Shown here one piece after another: positions 4,876-25,263 of a stretch of DNA of 25,841 nucleotides. The DNA comes from a virus, in the IMG/VR virus record IMGVR_UViG_3300023179_000457, positions 1-25,841 of that record; one strand, given 5' to 3'. Under the pieces are notes generated by a model that had not been told where the DNA came from, searched no databases, and saw only the letters and a program-made list of their open reading frames with translations. The stretch's first letter is position 1, and every line of letters begins with the position of its first letter. The position numbers and the translations under genes are program-made.

Positions 4876-5286
4876 ATGTCGCAGTTATCATTAAAAAACA
4901 TGCTTGTACCTAGCAAAGAGGTTACCGTAGAGTATCCTGGTATGCCTGGATTTAATGTACAAGTTAGTTTTTTATCTAGAGAAAGTCTACAAAATATTAG
5001 AAAAAAAGCTACTAAAACTACATTTAAAAATCGACAACCAATCGAAGAATTAAATGATGATTTATTTTTAGAACTATATGTAAAAGGTAGTATAAAAGGT
5101 TGGAGCGGTTTAAAAATGAGTTATTTAGAACAGCTATCTCCCGTTGATGTTAGTGATCATGACCCTAATCAAGAACTAGAGTATACCGAAGAAAATGCTT
5201 TATACCTAATGAAAAGTTCTGTAAATTTTGATAGTTTTATTAGTGAACATGTAACTGACCTGGGAAACTTTTCCAAGAACAAATAG
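4876..5286 (+). CDS. Tail assembly chaperone, short form (lambda gpG-like)
   Basis: A 136-residue predicted cytoplasmic assembly chaperone that in lambda coats the tape measure protein and recruits tube subunits, and is absent from the finished virion. Start: AAGGA at 4861-4865, ten bases before ATG. The N-terminal part resembles tail chaperones in layout: a short beta unit (KEVTVEYPGMPGFNVQVSFL), a basic helix (SRESLQNIRKKATK), then a helical part (EELNDDLFLELYVKGSIKGWSGL). Its place between tail tube and tape measure is the standard one. The frame ends at TAG 5284-5286, five codons after a G GGA AAC slip site, and this is the only TAG stop among the genes seen here. A share of ribosomes should shift into the -1 frame to give the longer product. 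Sequence similarity to lambda gpG is not obvious; the call rests on position, size and the slip site. Confidence 0.85.
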   Translation: MSQLSLKNMLVPSKEVTVEYPGMPGFNVQVSFLSRESLQNIRKKATKTTFKNRQPIEELNDDLFLELYVKGSIKGWSGLKMSYLEQLSPVDVSDHDPNQELEYTEENALYLMKSSVNFDSFISEHVTDLGNFSKNK

Positions 5287-5663
5287 ATATAAATTATAAT
5301 CAACTAGAAAACTATTTAACTAATCGTGATCTTGGAGTAACTAAAGACAGTTATTTTGAAATCTGCGAGGCGCTAGGTAGTGAACCAGATCAAGAACAAG
5401 TACCTGTAGAATTTGATGAATTATTTCAACAAGCTCAACAAGCCATAGAAATATATGGTTTTTTAACAGACCGTTGGGAAGGTATGAGTGGTACTTTTAT
5501 GGGTAAAGATTACACTATAGTATTTGATCTGTTTAAAGTTTTTCAAGTAATTTCTATTGAAGAGCAGCAGTTAATATTAAGAATAATGTCTATGCTTGAT
5601 AGTATTAGAGGCAATATTATAGCTAAAAAGCAAAAAGAACGTGAACAAAAGCCCTCTAGTTAA
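4876..5663 (+). CDS. Tail assembly chaperone, frameshifted long form (gpGT-like)
   Basis: Predicted 262-residue fusion made by -1 slippage at 5262-5268: 131 residues in the first frame, then 131 read from base 5268 (LFQEQIDINYNQLENYLTNR...). The second half is a clean open frame to TAA at 5661-5663 with no start codon near its beginning; its frame is closed by TGA at 5256-5258, only three bases before the slip site, so it can hardly be expressed except through the shift. It is mostly helical and acidic (DELFQQAQQAIEIYGFLTDR, then a TMGKDYTIVFDLFKVF-type segment) with a basic Lys/Arg/Gln-rich tail. In lambda the T part binds tail tube subunits while G binds the tape measure protein, and the G:GT ratio matters for tail assembly. 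The gene ends inside a perfect terminator hairpin. Confidence 0.88.
5262..5268 (+). promoter_or_regulatory. Programmed -1 ribosomal frameshift site GGGAAAC
   Basis: The heptamer G GGA AAC fits X XXY YYZ in the frame of the short chaperone; lambda uses GGGAAAG at the same place in its G/GT genes. TGA in the -1 frame at 5256-5258 and TAG in the 0 frame at 5284-5286 confine the switch to this spot. Possible downstream pairing (tccaag 5272-5277 with cttgga 5331-5336, aaatag 5281-5286 with ctattt 5312-5317) is weak and close to the slip site, so a stimulatory structure is uncertain. Confidence 0.9.
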
Positions 5664-5678
5664 CTAGAGGGCTTTTTT
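5651..5678 (+). terminator. Strong intrinsic terminator after chaperone genes
   Basis: A perfect palindrome: gccctctag (5651-5659), TTAA, ctagagggc (5664-5672), followed by six Ts (5673-5678). The chaperone stop codon TAA lies at 5661-5663, in the loop. Because an A-run precedes the left arm, it could also act on the opposite strand. A promoter follows 21 bases later, so the head-to-chaperone unit and the tape-measure unit are transcriptionally separated. Confidence 0.93.
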
Positions 5679-5698
5679 ATTGTTAAAAAATCCTGCTA

Positions 5699-5727
5699 TT
5701 GATATTTTTTAACTGCTGTGTTATAAT
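5699..5727 (+). promoter_or_regulatory. Sigma-70 promoter for tape measure operon
   Basis: TTGATA (5699-5704), a 17-base spacer and TATAAT (5722-5727) with an extended -10 (TGT just before, giving TGTGTTATAAT). Expected start of transcription is near 5734, leaving a leader of about 55 bases before the tape measure ATG. The same extended -10 string recurs in the promoter at 20861. Such a match to consensus implies recognition by the host's main sigma factor. Confidence 0.85.
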
Positions 5728-15362: not shown

Positions 15363-18300
15363 TGGCTACTACTATACTTAATTCCAGAGATACGGCATTA
15401 CAAAATTTAGCTCCTAGAATATTAGGAGTTCAAACTAATTTTATTTCTCTATCGGCTCCAGTTGTGGAATTTAATTATGGCCAAGATATAACTACTGCTA
15501 ATCCGAGTAGTATTAATATTACGGCCATATTAGCAGGAGTGTTAGCTGGTACAGTAACATTTAATGTTACTGGTCTTAATCCAGGAACTAATTTAAATGT
15601 AGCAAATAATATACTTACACTTCAAGCCAGCCAATTAGCTGGAGATAGTGCTATTATAACAGCAAGTATAAATTATCAAGGCACTGCTTATACTTCATTA
15701 CCTATAACAGTAGTTAAGAACTATACTGCTACTAGTTTAAGAATAACTAGATTAACTGATTTAGTAGTAACAGATCAGAGTGGCAATAATTATCAATTAC
15801 CTACAGATTTAAACACATTAGAATTATACAATGGTACTGTATTATTAAGTAATGTAATTTATGATATTATAGATGGTGTAGATTTATATACAACAACTTC
15901 AATAATATTTAGTAATTCAATTTCTACTGGTAATAAAATTTTTGTAATCGGTCCAAATCTTGCCTGGATACAAGGTGATTATATTTTATTTAAATATAAT
16001 GACTCTAATTATATGTATGGCACAGTAGTGGCATATTATCCTAATAATGGACTTTTAACAGTAAATATATCAAATATACAAGGTTCAGGTACCTATACTA
16101 CATATAATGTTATATTTTCAAACTCTAGTGGTGCTAGTTATATAGCGAAACGAACAACAAAAAATGGATTAAGTGTTACTATAAATACTAGTACTGGAAA
16201 TATAAAAGTATCTCAAGCTTCAAACAATGCTTGGTTGTCTCGTACTGAAAAATTTATACTAACTGCAGTAAAGAATAACATTACCTATACTACTACATAC
16301 ACTGTTTATAAAACAGGTACAGATGTTGTAGATAGTACGCCTCCTCCAGATCCTGCATTTAATTTAAGTGGAAATTTAACCGCAGCAGTATCATCTATAA
16401 CAATTAAGTTACCAAATTTACCCGTATATATACAAGGTCACGGACATAGTAGTACAGTAGTATATGGAGCAATACGTGCTACTAATGCTGGTATACCAAT
16501 TTTTGATAATGCTATAAAATTAACAGAATTTATAGGTACTGCTACAAGTATTGCAACTAATCCTAGTACTAATTGGTATATTTGGATAAAATATAAGAGC
16601 TCTGATGGGTATGAAAGTACTAACCCATTAGCATTAGGAAATATAACAACTGGCGAAGATGTTTCAACATTACTGGAAGCTCTTTCTGGTGAAATTACAA
16701 ACAGCCAATTATCTACTAGTTTAGCTAATACAGTTAGTTTAATTACTAGTGATAGTACAGTTCAAGGATCAGTTGCTAATTTAATAAGTAATGTACAAAC
16801 AAATTTACAAAGTCAAATTAATGATATTATACTGCCTCCACTATTTTCTATAAAAAATTATGCAATAAATGAAGTTACTGGTTATGACGGCAGTATTTAT
16901 AGAGCTAATCTAGGTATAAATGTAGTACAAAAAACAGTTACTAATACCTATAGTGATGATACAATTAGTGTTTCGAGTTCAAGTGATCTTAATATAGGTC
17001 AAGCAATACAGTTTACAGGTACTATTTTCGGAGGAGTCCAACAATCTACAATTTACTATATTAAAACTATAAATTCCGCAATAAACAGAATTACTATTAG
17101 TGCAACATTAAACGGAACAACAATTGATTTTAATAATAATTCTGGTTCAATGACGCTATCAGCAGTCCCTAATCCAACCGATACTAGTTATTGGACTAGA
17201 GTGGGTGATTATACTAGCTTAGGAGATAGTGTTAGTAGTTTAACTATTGCAATGCAAAATGTTTATACTAAAAATCAAACTGATAGCGCAATTACAAATC
17301 AACTAGATCTGTTTAAAAGTACCACACAGTTGCAAAACTATGTTACTAATTCTACTATACAAAATAACTACTATACAAAAACAGAAACTGATACTGCAAT
17401 TAGTGTAGCTTCTAGTACTTTATCTAGTTCTATTAATCAAGACGTTAATACAGTTAAAAGTAATTTACAAACTAATTATCTAACTAGTGTTCAAACCGAC
17501 GGTGCAATTAGTCAAGCTACATCTAATTTATATACTCAGCTTAAGGGAGACGTTAGCACTGTTGATAGTAAATTAACTAATAATTATATTACTATCGTAG
17601 ATGCTAATAATGCAATTACTCAGGCAAAAAATGAATTGTCATCAACCTTTAACCAAAATATTAATACTGTTGATAGTAAGTTAACTAATAATTATATTAC
17701 TGCCACTAATAGTAGCAATGCACTTAGTCAAGCAATAACTACACTAGAATCAAGATTTAATGGTAATTTAGATTCTGTTAATGGAAGTATTGGAGTTTTA
17801 AGTAGTAATTTATATAACAACTATCTTACTGCAGCTAGTACTACTGGTGCTATTGCTGAAGCAACAAATGCATTGTCTGTAGTACTTAATGGAAATATTA
17901 CTTCTAATATTACAACTTTTCAACAAACTAAAATTGGTTATGCTGTAATAACAAATAGTAGTCCTACTCAAGCTTTTGACAATAATGGACAAATAAAAAC
18001 CAAGGAAGATGTAGATGCTTGGAATTCTAGAACTAATATACCTCAAGGCACAAATTTTCAGTTAACATGGATTACAGGATTACCAATAGCTACTGCTGTA
18101 AAACAAGTTAATATTAGTGACGGGGATAGTAGCATTAATTTAGAACAAAGATTTATAGCACAAAAAAATACTAATACCAACCTACAAGGCCAATATACGG
18201 TCAAAATAGATAATAAGGGAAAAATAAGTGGTTTTGGATTAGCTAGTACAGGTTCAGGAGACATTTCACAATCTTCTTTTCTTATTAGAGCAGATCGTTT

Positions 18301-21010: not shown

Positions 21011-21343
21011 ATGATTGAGCTTGAAAATCATAGTTTTTTACAAACGCTTTCTGTGGGTGCAATGGCTATTATAGCATTAGGCGTAGGTATACAAAAATTA
21101 TTAAAAGAATGGCGCACTACTAACGCAGAAACTAGTGTTATTGAAATGATGCACAAGGAATTAGAGCGTATGGGTACGCAAAATTCTAAATTAACTGAAG
21201 AATTAACCAAATTACAAAATGAAATTGTAGAGTTAAACAGTCAGTTAACTAAACTTAATATTGAAAATAATAAACTGCAACAAGATATAGCTGCATTAAC
21301 TTTAGAGTTAAACAGTTTTAAAAAATTAACTAATCTAAAGTAA
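21011..21343 (+). CDS. Membrane-anchored leucine-zipper protein
   Basis: A 110-residue protein of unknown function. Start: AAAGGAG eight bases before ATG. One predicted membrane segment lies at residues 9-27 (FLQTLSVGAMAIIALGVGI). The flank after it is basic (QKLLKEWR) and the N-terminus acidic (MIELE), so the positive-inside rule favours the C-terminal part in the cytoplasm. Residues 61-103 form an unbroken heptad pattern with Leu at d positions 61, 68, 75, 82, 89 and 96, and L65, I72, L79, N86, I93, L100 at a positions. A single Asn in the core is a known mark of parallel dimeric zippers (GCN4). It heads the operon that continues with fibre genes. Candidates are a holin-like or spanin-like lysis protein, or a membrane factor for assembly or exclusion; none is proven, and the charge pattern speaks against an inner-membrane spanin. 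Confidence 0.7.
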   Translation: MIELENHSFLQTLSVGAMAIIALGVGIQKLLKEWRTTNAETSVIEMMHKELERMGTQNSKLTEELTKLQNEIVELNSQLTKLNIENNKLQQDIAALTLELNSFKKLTNLK

Positions 21344-21361: not shown

Positions 21362-22024
21362 ATGGCTCGTAGTAGATTAATAGATCCAATTAATGATTTA
21401 ATTAGTGATGGTGGAGCAATATTATGGTCATTTGTGCAAGGCGAGCAGCTAGAGTTTCCTTTAACACTTGGCTTTATAGAAAATATATTAATAACAGATG
21501 CGATTATAGCTGATTCTACTAAAGGTTATACATTAGAAGCAAAAGTAATTGAGGCAAATAATCAATCTGGTCAAACTGAAAAACCTAGTGCTATTAAAGC
21601 TGGTGGAATAACAACTAATATATCTATTAGGGTACCGTATTATGCCGGAATATGGGGATCAAGCACGGTCTACTTACGAGAAGATGTAGTACTTTATAGT
21701 GGCGTTTATTATAAATGTTTAGTAGCTGGTAATAGTAGTGTTAATGGTACTCCTAGTACTACTAACACTAAGTGGCAAGTTACACTTCCAAATAAAGTAT
21801 ATATACAATATCCCAATGAATTAGCAAATGACTGGGTTACAAAGTCAGTATTAACTGCTACTACATCTATCTATGGGTTTTTTGAATTACGAGTAACAGA
21901 ACCTAGTAGTGCTGGCAGCTATAGCTTAGGTCCAGCATTTGTACGTACCTGGAAGCCTGTACGCGGTATGGTAGAAATATTATATAGTCCAACACTAAGT
22001 AGTGATGACTTAAGTGCTACATAA
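21362..22024 (+). CDS. Structural protein with carbohydrate-binding-like module
   Basis: A 220-residue protein, probably virion-associated and attached to the tail tip or fibres. Start: GAGGTG four bases before ATG. Residues 1-90 and 140-220 are beta-rich (GGAILWSFVQGEQLEFPLTL; WKPVRGMVEILYSPTLSSDD), and the end resembles small proteins that precede fibre genes in other phages. Between them, residues ~91-140 (IWGSSTVYLREDVVLYSG, VYYKCLVAGNSSVNGTPS, then TKWQV) fit the CBM5/12 chitin-binding-like pattern W....Y..gd.V.y.g..Y......n....P.....W, with aromatic residues at the usual places. The canonical Gly-Asp of that motif reads Glu-Asp here. Such modules in phage tails usually help binding to surface sugars. 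The module appears inserted into a larger beta domain. Name of the carrier family unknown. Confidence 0.6.
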   Translation: MARSRLIDPINDLISDGGAILWSFVQGEQLEFPLTLGFIENILITDAIIADSTKGYTLEAKVIEANNQSGQTEKPSAIKAGGITTNISIRVPYYAGIWGSSTVYLREDVVLYSGVYYKCLVAGNSSVNGTPSTTNTKWQVTLPNKVYIQYPNELANDWVTKSVLTATTSIYGFFELRVTEPSSAGSYSLGPAFVRTWKPVRGMVEILYSPTLSSDDLSAT

Positions 22025-22035
22025 AGGAAAATATT

Positions 22036-24801
22036 ATGGCAGATTTAAATTTTACAACTTCTGCTAATAATATTATTGCCCAAGTAGTGCAACCAGAAAT
22101 AGTTGCAGATGCTAATAATCCCAATATAGTAGCATCTGTTAGTACAGGCAATATTGAAGTTACTAGTACCCAAGTAGTACAGTCAGGAATAATTGGAGAT
22201 GTTAGTAATCCCAATATAGTAGCATCTGTTAGTACAGGCAATATAGAAGTTACTAGTGCCATTGGCAAAGAAAAAGAATTATCGGTTAATACTATAAATT
22301 TAGGGGAAGAAAATATCCCCGATCCTATACTGTATTATAGAAAAAATGATATAGCATCTATAATTTTAAGTCAATTATATTTTATTATAGCAAAAAAACT
22401 TCAAGATAATGAAAATCTAAGCATACAGGACACTATAGTAAAATTACTTAATACAAGAATAGAAGAATTAACTGATATTATTGATCAAGTAAGATTAAAC
22501 TTTTCAACAGTATTTCAAGATTTAGTAGATGCTACAGACGATTTTTATGGCTTAGCAAATATTGATGATGATCAAATAGCTAGTATTCAAAAAGTTCTAA
22601 TAGATTATTTGAATGGAATAACTGATAGTTTATATAAAAGTATTGGTAAAAAAATAGAATTAACATTAGTTTCTACTGATACTTCTAAAAAATTATTAAG
22701 TAAAATATCTAACGATAGCTTTATATCATTAGATATAATTACAAAAATCACCGAAAAAAGCTTAATTGAAACAAAAACAATACTAGAACAAAGTACAAAA
22801 TTACTAGAAAAAGTAACTAGTGATATAGTAATTAAACAAGATTTAGTTAATTTATTGATTAATTTAAATAAACTAGATACTGTACAAACTATTAGTAACT
22901 TTTTTAGTATAGTTACTTTTATAAGAGAATTTAGCGATCAACTAGATGCTACAGATGACTTTTATGGCTTAGCAAATATTGATGATGATCAAATAGCTAG
23001 TTTTCAAAAAGTTTTAGTAGATCAAATACTATTAGTAGAACAATTTATTACTCAAGCTAATTTTTTACGATCTTTTAGTGATAGTTTGACTTCAGTTATT
23101 GAGTTAAATAGTAAGCTATATGACAAAAACAATTTAGATCAAATCAATACCAGTGAATTAATTACTAAAATTATTGATTATCAAAGAATCTTAATTGAAA
23201 CAAAAACAATACTAGAACAAAGTACAAAATTACTAGAAAAAGTAACTAGTGATATAGTAATTAAACAAGATTTAGTTAATTTATTGATTAATTTAAATAA
23301 ACTAGATACTGTACAAACTATTAGTAACTTTTTTAGTATAGTTACTTTTATAAGAGAATTTAGCGATCAACTAGATGCTACAGATGACTTTTATGGCTTA
23401 GCAAATATTGATGATGATCAAATAGCTAGTTTTCAAAAAGTTTTAGTAGATCAAATACTATTAGTAGAACAATTTATTACTCAAGCTAATTTTTTACGAT
23501 CTTTTAGTGATAGTTTGACTTCAGTTATTGAGTTAAATAGTAAGCTATATGACAAAAACAATTTAGATCAAATCAATACCAGTGAATTAATTACTAAAAT
23601 TATTGATTATCAAAGAATCTTAATTGAAACAAAAACAATACTAGAACAAAGTACAAAATTACTAGAAAAAGTAACTAGTGATATAGTAATTAAACAAGAT
23701 TTAGTTAATTTATTGATTAATTTAAATAAACTAGATACTGTACAAACTATTAGTAACTTTTCTAGTATAGTTACTTTTATAAGAGAATTTAGCGATCAAC
23801 TAGATGCTACAGATGACTTTTATGGCTTAGCAAATATTGATGATGATCAAATAGCTAGTTTTCAAAAAGTTTTAGTAGATCAAATACTATTAGTAGAACA
23901 ATTTATTACTCAAGCTAATTTTTTACGATCTTTTAGCGATACTATTAATGGTATAACTGAAATTATTAATAAAAATATACAGCTTAGATATAATGATGAA
24001 ATAATTAAAAGTGATTTAGATACTAAATTATTTACTAAAATACTAGTCGACAAAGCTATTAATTTAGAACAATTTACATTTGCTACTGAAAAATATTTTG
24101 AAAATTTAACAGCTATTGATGACAATCAAATAGTTAATTTACAAAAATTATTAATAAATCAAGTAAATATTACGTTAGATACTTTTATTAGCAACATTAA
24201 TAAAGTACTAATTAATCAATTATCTTTGTCAGAAGAAACAATAATAAATGTTAACAAAATACTATCAGATCAAACACAATCAATCTTAGATCAAGCTATA
24301 AAATTATTACAGAAATTATTTAATGATAGTTTAAATTCTGTTAGTGAAGTAAATACTAAACTTTATAATAAAAATAATTTAGATGAAATTAATACTAGTC
24401 AGTTAGCTTCAAAAATTATAGAAAAATCTTCGCAAGATTTATTGACTACTATAGATAGTTATAAATTATTAGCTGTTGAAAAATCTTTATTAGATCAAAC
24501 TCAGTTACAAGAAATAGTATATTTCTTAAAAATTACTACTATTTTCTTCTATGATCAACTAGATGCTACAGATGATTTTTATGGCTTAGCAAATATTGAT
24601 GATGATCAACTAGCTAGTCTTGGTAAGGTGTTGGCAAGTAGTACCTCGGGAGCCACAGATTTTAGTATTCGTCATATAATGCCAAATAAAGTGGATAGTG
24701 TTGCTACCAGTGAGTTAAGATCAGCACATATTCAAGATTATTTTTTAGAAGAGTATGTAGAACATACTCAAAGATATGTAGGAACCATATTAACTATTTA
24801 A
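22036..24801 (+). CDS. Repetitive fibre-like structural protein
   Basis: A 921-residue protein made largely of repeats, probably an elongated fibre or tail decoration; I know similar repetitive proteins next to fibre genes in other phages, but cannot name a family. AAAGGA lies seven bases before ATG. Order: two 30-residue repeats (16-75) containing NPNIVASVSTGNIEVTS; a helical region; a 143-residue unit present 2.7 times (from about 243) nearly identical even in DNA; a diverged region to ~835; a final repeat motif; and a unique C-terminus (FSIRHIMPNKVDSVATSELR...) that may be the anchoring part. The 16-residue motif DATDDFYGLANIDDDQ occurs five times. Inside the unit, shorter sub-repeats of ~20 residues end in S-D or L-D, rich in Ile/Leu/Lys/Asp. 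Arginine is rare and mostly AGA. Length may vary between relatives through repeat number. Confidence 0.7.
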   Translation: MADLNFTTSANNIIAQVVQPEIVADANNPNIVASVSTGNIEVTSTQVVQSGIIGDVSNPNIVASVSTGNIEVTSAIGKEKELSVNTINLGEENIPDPILYYRKNDIASIILSQLYFIIAKKLQDNENLSIQDTIVKLLNTRIEELTDIIDQVRLNFSTVFQDLVDATDDFYGLANIDDDQIASIQKVLIDYLNGITDSLYKSIGKKIELTLVSTDTSKKLLSKISNDSFISLDIITKITEKSLIETKTILEQSTKLLEKVTSDIVIKQDLVNLLINLNKLDTVQTISNFFSIVTFIREFSDQLDATDDFYGLANIDDDQIASFQKVLVDQILLVEQFITQANFLRSFSDSLTSVIELNSKLYDKNNLDQINTSELITKIIDYQRILIETKTILEQSTKLLEKVTSDIVIKQDLVNLLINLNKLDTVQTISNFFSIVTFIREFSDQLDATDDFYGLANIDDDQIASFQKVLVDQILLVEQFITQANFLRSFSDSLTSVIELNSKLYDKNNLDQINTSELITKIIDYQRILIETKTILEQSTKLLEKVTSDIVIKQDLVNLLINLNKLDTVQTISNFSSIVTFIREFSDQLDATDDFYGLANIDDDQIASFQKVLVDQILLVEQFITQANFLRSFSDTINGITEIINKNIQLRYNDEIIKSDLDTKLFTKILVDKAINLEQFTFATEKYFENLTAIDDNQIVNLQKLLINQVNITLDTFISNINKVLINQLSLSEETIINVNKILSDQTQSILDQAIKLLQKLFNDSLNSVSEVNTKLYNKNNLDEINTSQLASKIIEKSSQDLLTTIDSYKLLAVEKSLLDQTQLQEIVYFLKITTIFFYDQLDATDDFYGLANIDDDQLASLGKVLASSTSGATDFSIRHIMPNKVDSVATSELRSAHIQDYFLEEYVEHTQRYVGTILTI
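22081..22260 (+). repeat. 90-bp tandem direct repeat, two copies
   Basis: Bases 22081-22170 and 22171-22260 are adjacent copies encoding 30 residues each. The 3' halves (from aatcccaatatagtagcatc onward) are nearly identical and the 5' halves differ more (QPEIVADANN against QSGIIGDVSN). The more conserved half encodes NPNIVASVSTGNIEVTS. Confidence 0.9.
22762..23936 (+). repeat. 429-bp tandem direct repeat, about 2.7 copies
   Basis: Copies begin at 22762, 23191 and 23620, each with ttaattgaaac. The first two full copies (429 bp, 143 codons) look identical by eye; the third is cut at about 23936 and differs in at least one base in the shared part (T to C near 23761, Phe to Ser). The unit length is a multiple of three, so the frame is kept. 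Near-identity including silent sites implies recent duplication or ongoing homogenisation by recombination, and the true copy number could differ if the source assembly collapsed or expanded it. Confidence 0.95.
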
Positions 24802-24810
24802 GGATATATT

Positions 24811-25263
24811 ATGTTAATTGATAAAGTGAAAGCAAAAGGTACTGTTCATTTTGTACTTACTGATGAAAACGGTAAAGTTAAAGAGCAGCGAGAAGAAAAT
24901 TTAGTTGTTAATACAGGTTTAGCATATATTGCTAGTCGTATGGTTGGCACAGCTAAAAATGTTATGAGCCATATGGCAGTAGGAACCGGCACAACGGCAG
25001 CTGCCGCTGCAGACAGTGCACTACAAACAGAAAGTGCACGTGTAGCTCTTACTAGCACAACTATTGTAACTACTGTAGCTGCAAACGATGCAGTACAATA
25101 TGTAGCTACATTTAATCCAGGTACAGGAACAGCAGCATTAACAGAAGCTGGCATATTTAATGCTAGTAGTAGTGGTGATTTATTATGCCGCACAGTATTT
25201 CCTGTTATTAACAAAGGTGCACTAGATACACTAACAATTACTTGGAAAGTAACAGTAGCCTAA
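24811..25263 (+). CDS. Small virion protein associated with tail fibres
   Basis: A 150-residue protein with AAGGA overlapping the stop of the repeat-protein gene, nine bases away. The pattern is one I recognise from small structural proteins beside tail fibres in many tailed phages: an N-terminal strand pair (GTVHFVLTDENGKVKEQREE), NLVVNTGLAYIASRM, SHMAVGTGTTAAAAADSALQ, ESARVAL, a YVATFNPGTGTAALTEAGIF segment, then LLCRTVFPVINKGALDTLTI and TWKVTV. The motif 'htavGtGtt....dt.L..E..R' followed by 'eaGif' is the family hallmark. It is all beta with Ala/Thr-rich loops and is likely a subunit of the distal tail or fibre base. Its precise role is not known. Arginine codons here are CGN (CGA, CGT, CGT, CGC), unlike the gene before it, hinting at higher expression or different origin. 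Confidence 0.7.
   Translation: MLIDKVKAKGTVHFVLTDENGKVKEQREENLVVNTGLAYIASRMVGTAKNVMSHMAVGTGTTAAAAADSALQTESARVALTSTTIVTTVAANDAVQYVATFNPGTGTAALTEAGIFNASSSGDLLCRTVFPVINKGALDTLTITWKVTVA

What the first reader, a model, noticed from the sequence alone, without database searches (positions are those of the whole stretch)
22762..23936. Nearly perfect 429-bp in-frame tandem repeat in a fibre-like gene
Two full copies look identical by eye and a third partial copy differs at a base or so, including silent sites, while flanking regions of the same gene are diverged versions of the same motifs. This pattern suggests very recent expansion or gene-conversion homogenisation, and would let the length of a fibre change by steps of 143 residues. 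It may be a phage counterpart of repeat-number phase variation in bacterial surface proteins.
Basis: partly seen in the sequence, partly recalled or inferred. Interest (0 to 1): 0.7.

Follow-up and report, generated by a model that had tools for sequence, protein, structure and literature searches.

The report
Length-variable phage fibre with fresh repeat
An uncultivated virus of bacteria carries a fibre-like gene built from repeats inside repeats, one of which was copied in tandem so recently that the copies are still almost letter-perfect; the same gene differs about 17-fold in length among related viruses while its neighbours stay the same.

Summary
In ORF 22036-24801 (921 aa) a 429-bp unit is repeated in frame 2.74 times at 22761-23936, with one mismatch. 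The gene sits behind a T5-like tail module on an IMG/VR fragment. It is the middle gene of a conserved cassette: a CBM5/12-like protein, then this protein, then a 150-aa tail-collar-like protein. The flanking genes are 42-85% identical across relatives. The middle gene ranges from 138 to 2334 aa, is mostly 24-32% identical to the window's, and has no Pfam family of its own. Relatives share an 18-residue repeat, a TDDFYGxANIDDDQ motif whose spacing is quantised at about 18.5 residues, and usually a conserved C-terminus. One relative (L016) has an independent 684-bp near-identical array; another (L019) has older ones. A third (L143) equals its relatives plus two extra 177-aa units. Best reading: a variable-length fibre or adhesin shaft that grows and shrinks by in-frame unit duplication through recombination; this array is very recent. 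"Phase variation" is not shown: steps are in frame, within-population variants could not be examined, and one pair 54% identical keeps the same unit layout. Exact copy number could be an assembly artefact. Folds failed (pLDDT 33), so the fibre role is inferred.

The parts
22036..24801 (+). Repeat-built fibre-like gene, 921 aa; middle gene of the cassette
   Evidence: ORF; 28-31% overall identity to seven aligned IMG/VR relatives; shared motif and C-terminus
22761..23936 (+). Near-perfect in-frame 429-bp array: 2.74 copies, one mismatch (23762 C)
22761..23189 (+). Copy 1 (143 codons)
23190..23618 (+). Copy 2, identical to copy 1
23619..23936 (+). Copy 3, partial (318 bp), one mismatch; then runs into a diverged unit
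22501..22605 (+). Older diverged copy of the TDDFYGLANIDDDQ motif region (86%)
24055..24159 (+). Oldest, degenerate unit (60%; ATEKYFENLTAIDDNQ)
24535..24639 (+). Older diverged motif copy (73%)
24703..24798 (+). C-terminal segment, counterpart of the family's (Q)xYFxxxYVxxGYxGT ending
21011..21343 (+). 110-aa protein with coiled-coil/Rz- and lipoprotein-like weak matches; first gene of the cassette
21362..22024 (+). 220-aa CBM5/12-like protein, directly upstream of the fibre gene in 15 of 22 relatives scanned
24811..25263 (+). 150-aa tail-collar-fibre-like protein (phrog_5417), directly downstream in nearly all relatives scanned

Best explanation
ORF 22036-24801 encodes a rod-like virion protein, most likely a fibre or adhesin shaft, made of 18- to 20-residue elementary repeats. 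These are grouped into units of about 140-250 residues, each marked by a TDD(F/Y)YGxANIDDDQ motif. It is made together with a CBM-like protein and a tail-collar-like protein that stay constant while the shaft's length is free to change. The near-perfect array arose very recently, when a 429-bp unit was copied in tandem by unequal recombination between homologous units. Because units are whole codons and whole structural repeats, gain or loss keeps the frame and lengthens or shortens the rod. SHOWN: the array, the hierarchy of repeats, the conserved cassette, and unit-number differences between relatives. INFERRED: that it is a fibre on the virion, that recombination (not replication slippage) made the array, and that length affects adsorption.
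For: Array and sharp edges. Edges coincide with the change to diverged versions of the same unit, as expected for recombination between homologous units. Codons identical in the three copies (30/30 in the motif, about 20 expected) but only 18-22 of 23-25 against the outer units, and near random in most relatives, so recent copying rather than DNA-level conservation. 18-aa periodicity in nearly all relatives; motif spacings quantised at 18.5 aa (resultant length 0.75, none of 5000 uniform random sets as strong). Independent near-identical array in L016 (684 bp, 98.5% over 947 bp) and older ones in L019 (87-92%). L143 versus L142/L012: same order of units plus two extra 177-aa units in genes 59-67% identical. 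Flanking genes constant and 10-70 nt away in most relatives, while the middle gene runs from 301 to 2334 aa in that set and down to 138 aa in EBPR siphovirus 1 gp36. Neighbours match tail-tip and tail-collar fibre models.
Against: Both AlphaFold2 models were uninformative (pLDDT 33), so no fold supports a fibre. No PDB, Pfam or named PHROG relative. In several relatives the cassette lies next to the terminase gene and not among tail genes, so a head or other virion location is possible. The 18-aa period is weak in the window's own protein (z 2.3). No reads or long-read data were available to confirm copy number.
Confidence: 0.6

Rival explanations
1. The copy number is an assembly product: the assembler walked a repeat loop an arbitrary number of times, and the true gene has another number of copies.
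For: The exact repeat (572 bp) is longer than usual short-read k-mers and probably longer than library inserts (general knowledge). In a second sample the contig carrying the L016 gene ends 42 bp after the two L016 copies become identical, showing that such arrays do break assemblies.
Against: The third copy carries its own base (23762 C), so it is not a mere re-walk of copy 1. The unit is in frame, codon-sized and matches the natural unit marked by the motif. Comparable arrays occur in an unrelated relative (L016). Inference: short-read error would more easily collapse such an array than expand it.
Confidence: 0.15
2. Old repeats are kept alike by gene conversion; they are not newly duplicated.
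For: Near identity including silent sites inside a gene made of many older units; outer motif copies also share more codons than expected (18-22 of 23-25 versus 15-17).
Against: Units 1, 5 and 6 of the same gene are not homogenised; identity ends abruptly at both edges; in most relatives motif copies share codons near the random level.
Confidence: 0.15
3. A repeat-number switch: copy number changes often within a phage population, and different fibre lengths serve different hosts or conditions.
For: A near-identical array is recombination-prone; unit number differs widely between relatives (1-11 motifs).
Against: No variant within a population seen or testable here. L011 and L015 keep all five units at 54% identity. 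Only 2 of about 31 complete relatives show young or fairly young internal copies. The step is in frame, so there is no on/off switching.
Confidence: 0.08
4. The protein is not a fibre but another extended virion component (head decoration, tail-associated spacer) or a secreted protein.
For: In several relatives the cassette sits beside the terminase gene; folds uninformative.
Against: The downstream partner matches tail-collar fibre models (PF12571 weakly, phrog_4176 tail fiber) and the upstream partner a carbohydrate-binding module; in the window the cassette follows the tail-tip fibre gene (PF09327).
Confidence: 0.2

Closest known systems
crAss-like phage BACON-domain tandem-repeat tail proteins (de Jonge et al. 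2019, PMC6949934)
   Same: Tail-associated tandem domain arrays in uncultivated phages that grew by internal duplication; suggested host-binding role
   Different: The unit here is not a BACON domain (no Pfam match), copies are nearly identical and not old, and the unit is itself made of 18-20-residue repeats with quantised spacing. In crAssphage cluster 1 the array order is reported as evolutionarily stable
Repeat-number variable surface proteins of bacteria, such as streptococcal M and alpha-C proteins (from general knowledge)
   Same: Near-identical long in-frame tandem repeats in a surface-exposed rod-like protein, able to change length by recombination
   Different: Encoded by a phage; no size variants demonstrated; no sequence relation shown
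Triple beta-spiral or beta-helical phage and adenovirus fibre shafts with 15-20-residue repeats (from general knowledge)
   Same: Short sequence repeat of similar length; shaft length set by the number of repeats
   Different: No sequence match to solved structures; fold not predicted with confidence
EBPR siphovirus 1 gp34-gp37 (JF412302)
   Same: Same cassette order; gp35 is 37% identical to the CBM-like protein and gp37 43% to the collar-like protein
   Different: Its middle gene gp36 is only 138 aa, an apparently minimal version

Membership tests
Variable-length cassette protein family defined here (CBM-like / repeat protein / collar-like) | Flanked by CBM-like gene upstream and 150-aa collar-like gene downstream | tested here: met
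   Window 21362-22024 and 24811-25263; same layout in most relatives
Variable-length cassette protein family defined here (CBM-like / repeat protein / collar-like) | TDD(F/Y)YGxANIDDDQ motif and YFxxxYVxxGYxGT-like C-terminus | tested here: met
   Five clear motif copies and the C-terminal counterpart DYFLEEYVEHTQRYVGT in the window
Variable-length cassette protein family defined here (CBM-like / repeat protein / collar-like) | 18-residue periodicity | tested here: inconclusive
   Strong in most relatives (z 4-13) but weak in the window protein (z 2.3 at 18, 3.3 at 6)
BACON-domain tandem-repeat phage tail proteins | BACON domain in the repeat unit | tested here: not met
   No BACON match in Pfam scans of the window protein or of relatives
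T5 L-shaped tail fibre family | Sequence match to T5-type side tail fibre | tested here: not met
   No match in cultured phages by tblastn at E 1e-5 although hundreds of T5-like genomes are in the collection; masking of low complexity limits this test
Phase-variable repeat-number genes | Near-identical tandem repeats inside the gene | tested here: met
Phase-variable repeat-number genes | Frame or expression switched by copy number | tested here: not met
   Unit of 429 bp is a multiple of 3 and the ORF stays open
Phase-variable repeat-number genes | Copy-number variants within one population | not testable with these tools
   No reads held; no near-identical phage carrying the unit found

The most novel reading that the evidence does not exclude
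A widespread phage cassette has a built-in length adjuster: two constant partner proteins hold a shaft whose length evolves in quantised steps of about 18.5 residues and, in bursts, by whole units of 140-230 residues through recombination, giving fibre-length polymorphism within phage populations that tunes adsorption past host capsules or surface layers.
Probability: 0.15. Interest if true: 0.75.

Novelty: new variant of a known kind. Interest (0 to 1): 0.42.

Why it matters
If right, it links a very recent duplication to a whole family in which one virion gene changes about 17-fold in length between constant neighbours, by quantised steps. That would give a clean natural system for asking how shaft length matters for phage adsorption, and whether phages tune fibre length by recombination. 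The family has no Pfam model of its own and is almost absent from cultured phage records.

Tried and rejected
Structure prediction of two units of the window protein (27-row alignment) and of a short relative, L141 (12 rows): pLDDT 33.6 and 33.1, all low confidence, so no fold search was run. Searching cultured phages with the window protein, L007, L006, L140, L150 and a motif peptide: no match; low-complexity masking may contribute. Weak Pfam and PHROG matches of the window protein (HisKA_2, Rbsn, phrog_11104, phrog_17912) were rejected: they have no stretch, or only a short one, passing on its own, are of unrelated kinds, and the relatives do not share them. Gene conversion of the motif as a general rule: rejected because codon sharing is near random in most relatives. 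Looking for near-identical phages with another copy number: L016 has one, but its contig breaks at the repeat; L019 and L143 have none; the window has none. T5-like complete contigs found by the tail tube mostly lack the cassette, so they gave no copy-number comparison. Literature searches for variable-number repeats in tail-fibre genes found only the crAssphage BACON work as a close parallel.

Full report
What is there. The window is a 25,841-bp IMG/VR fragment of a siphovirus with a T5-like tail module. It has a tail tube 30-33% identical to Vibrio and Klebsiella T5-like phages, a tail terminator, a chaperone, a tape measure and a tail-tip fibre protein (PF09327). Behind these lie a 110-aa protein, a 220-aa CBM5/12-like protein, the finding's gene (22036-24801, 921 aa), and a 150-aa tail-collar-like protein.

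The repeat. A 429-bp unit is repeated 2.74 times in frame at 22761-23936, with one mismatch. Copies 1 and 2 are identical over 429 bp. The third, partial copy has one changed base (F to S). Identity stops abruptly on both sides, where the sequence becomes a diverged form of the same unit. Inside the motif all 30 codons are the same in the three copies (about 20 expected from codon usage), against 18-22 of 23-25 between these and the outer units. In most relatives motif copies share codons only a little above chance, so the motif is normally conserved as protein and not as DNA. Hence the array is a very recent duplication.

The family. Searches of IMG/VR gave some 30 distinct relatives. They show (a) the motif TDD(F/Y)YGxANIDDDQxAxFxK, 1-11 times in those where it was counted; (b) an 18-residue sequence period, often with 36 and 38, and multiples of about 19 up to 228 and 266 in L164; (c) usually a C-terminus like QSYFAxxYVxPGYVGT. 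A few short members lack a recognisable motif. Distances between successive motifs fall on a ladder with a step of about 18.5 residues (resultant length 0.75; none of 5000 uniform random sets as strong). The protein is therefore a hierarchy: elementary repeats of 18-20 residues, units of about 140-250 residues, and occasionally fresh near-identical copies of whole units.

The cassette. In 22 relatives checked directly, the 150-aa collar-like gene lies just downstream in 21 (42-82% identity to the best of several queries, and 100% where the query came from that locus). The CBM-like gene lies just upstream in 15. Other relatives reached through the CBM-like gene show the same order. The middle gene ranges from 301 to 2334 aa in the first set, down to 142 aa in the wider set, and 138 aa in EBPR siphovirus 1 gp36. 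The cassette also occurs outside T5-like phages, next to terminase genes. Most long T5-like contigs searched lack it. It thus behaves as an exchangeable module with a length-free middle gene.

Unit gain and loss. L016 carries an independent array: 684-bp unit, 98.5% over 947 bp. L019 (2334 aa, 11 motifs) has older copies, 87-92% identical. L143 has the same order of units as L142 and L012 (59-67% identical) plus two extra 177-aa units before the last one. Those two are only 48% identical to each other at protein level, so they are old. On the other side, L011 and L015 keep the same five-unit layout at 54% identity, and only 2 of about 31 complete relatives besides the window have clear internal near-identical copies. 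Copy number therefore changes in evolution, but nothing here shows that it changes often.

Artefact check. An exact repeat of 572 bp is hard for short reads (general knowledge). The L016 gene in a second sample ends 42 bp into the identical stretch. The private base in copy 3 and the natural, in-frame unit argue for a real array, but the exact number of copies stays unproven.

Function. Two AlphaFold2 runs failed. The fibre role rests on the neighbours (tail-tip fibre, CBM-like, collar-like) and on the rod-like repeat architecture; it is an inference. No relative in the PDB.

Verdict. Observation confirmed; recent expansion supported; phase variation not supported. The more interesting result is the length-free middle gene of a conserved cassette with quantised repeats. 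The nearest published parallel found is the BACON tandem repeats of crAss-like phages (PMC6949934), which fail the membership test here because no BACON domain is present.

Noticed in passing
window 22079-22257: Two 90-bp direct repeats (about 87-89% identical) at the N-terminal end of the same gene, separate from the 429-bp array.
   Followed up: no
window 17558-17760: A 108-bp tandem repeat, 1.9 copies, 76% matches, inside the 1818-aa tail-tip ORF.
   Followed up: no
window 5286-5699: Gap between the tail chaperone ORF and the tape measure ORF, a place where T5-like and lambda-like phages often have a frameshifted chaperone extension; not examined.
   Followed up: no
L019:5464-12468: Largest relative: 2334 aa with 11 motif copies, flanked by the same two genes as in the window.
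   Followed up: partly
L163:7338 (end of contig): A contig from a second sample, 99.9% identical to L016's, ends 42 bp after the L016 repeat copies become identical.
   Followed up: yes
L144-L157, L158: The same cassette lies directly after a terminase-like gene in several phages unlike T5, suggesting exchange of the module between phage groups.
   Followed up: partly
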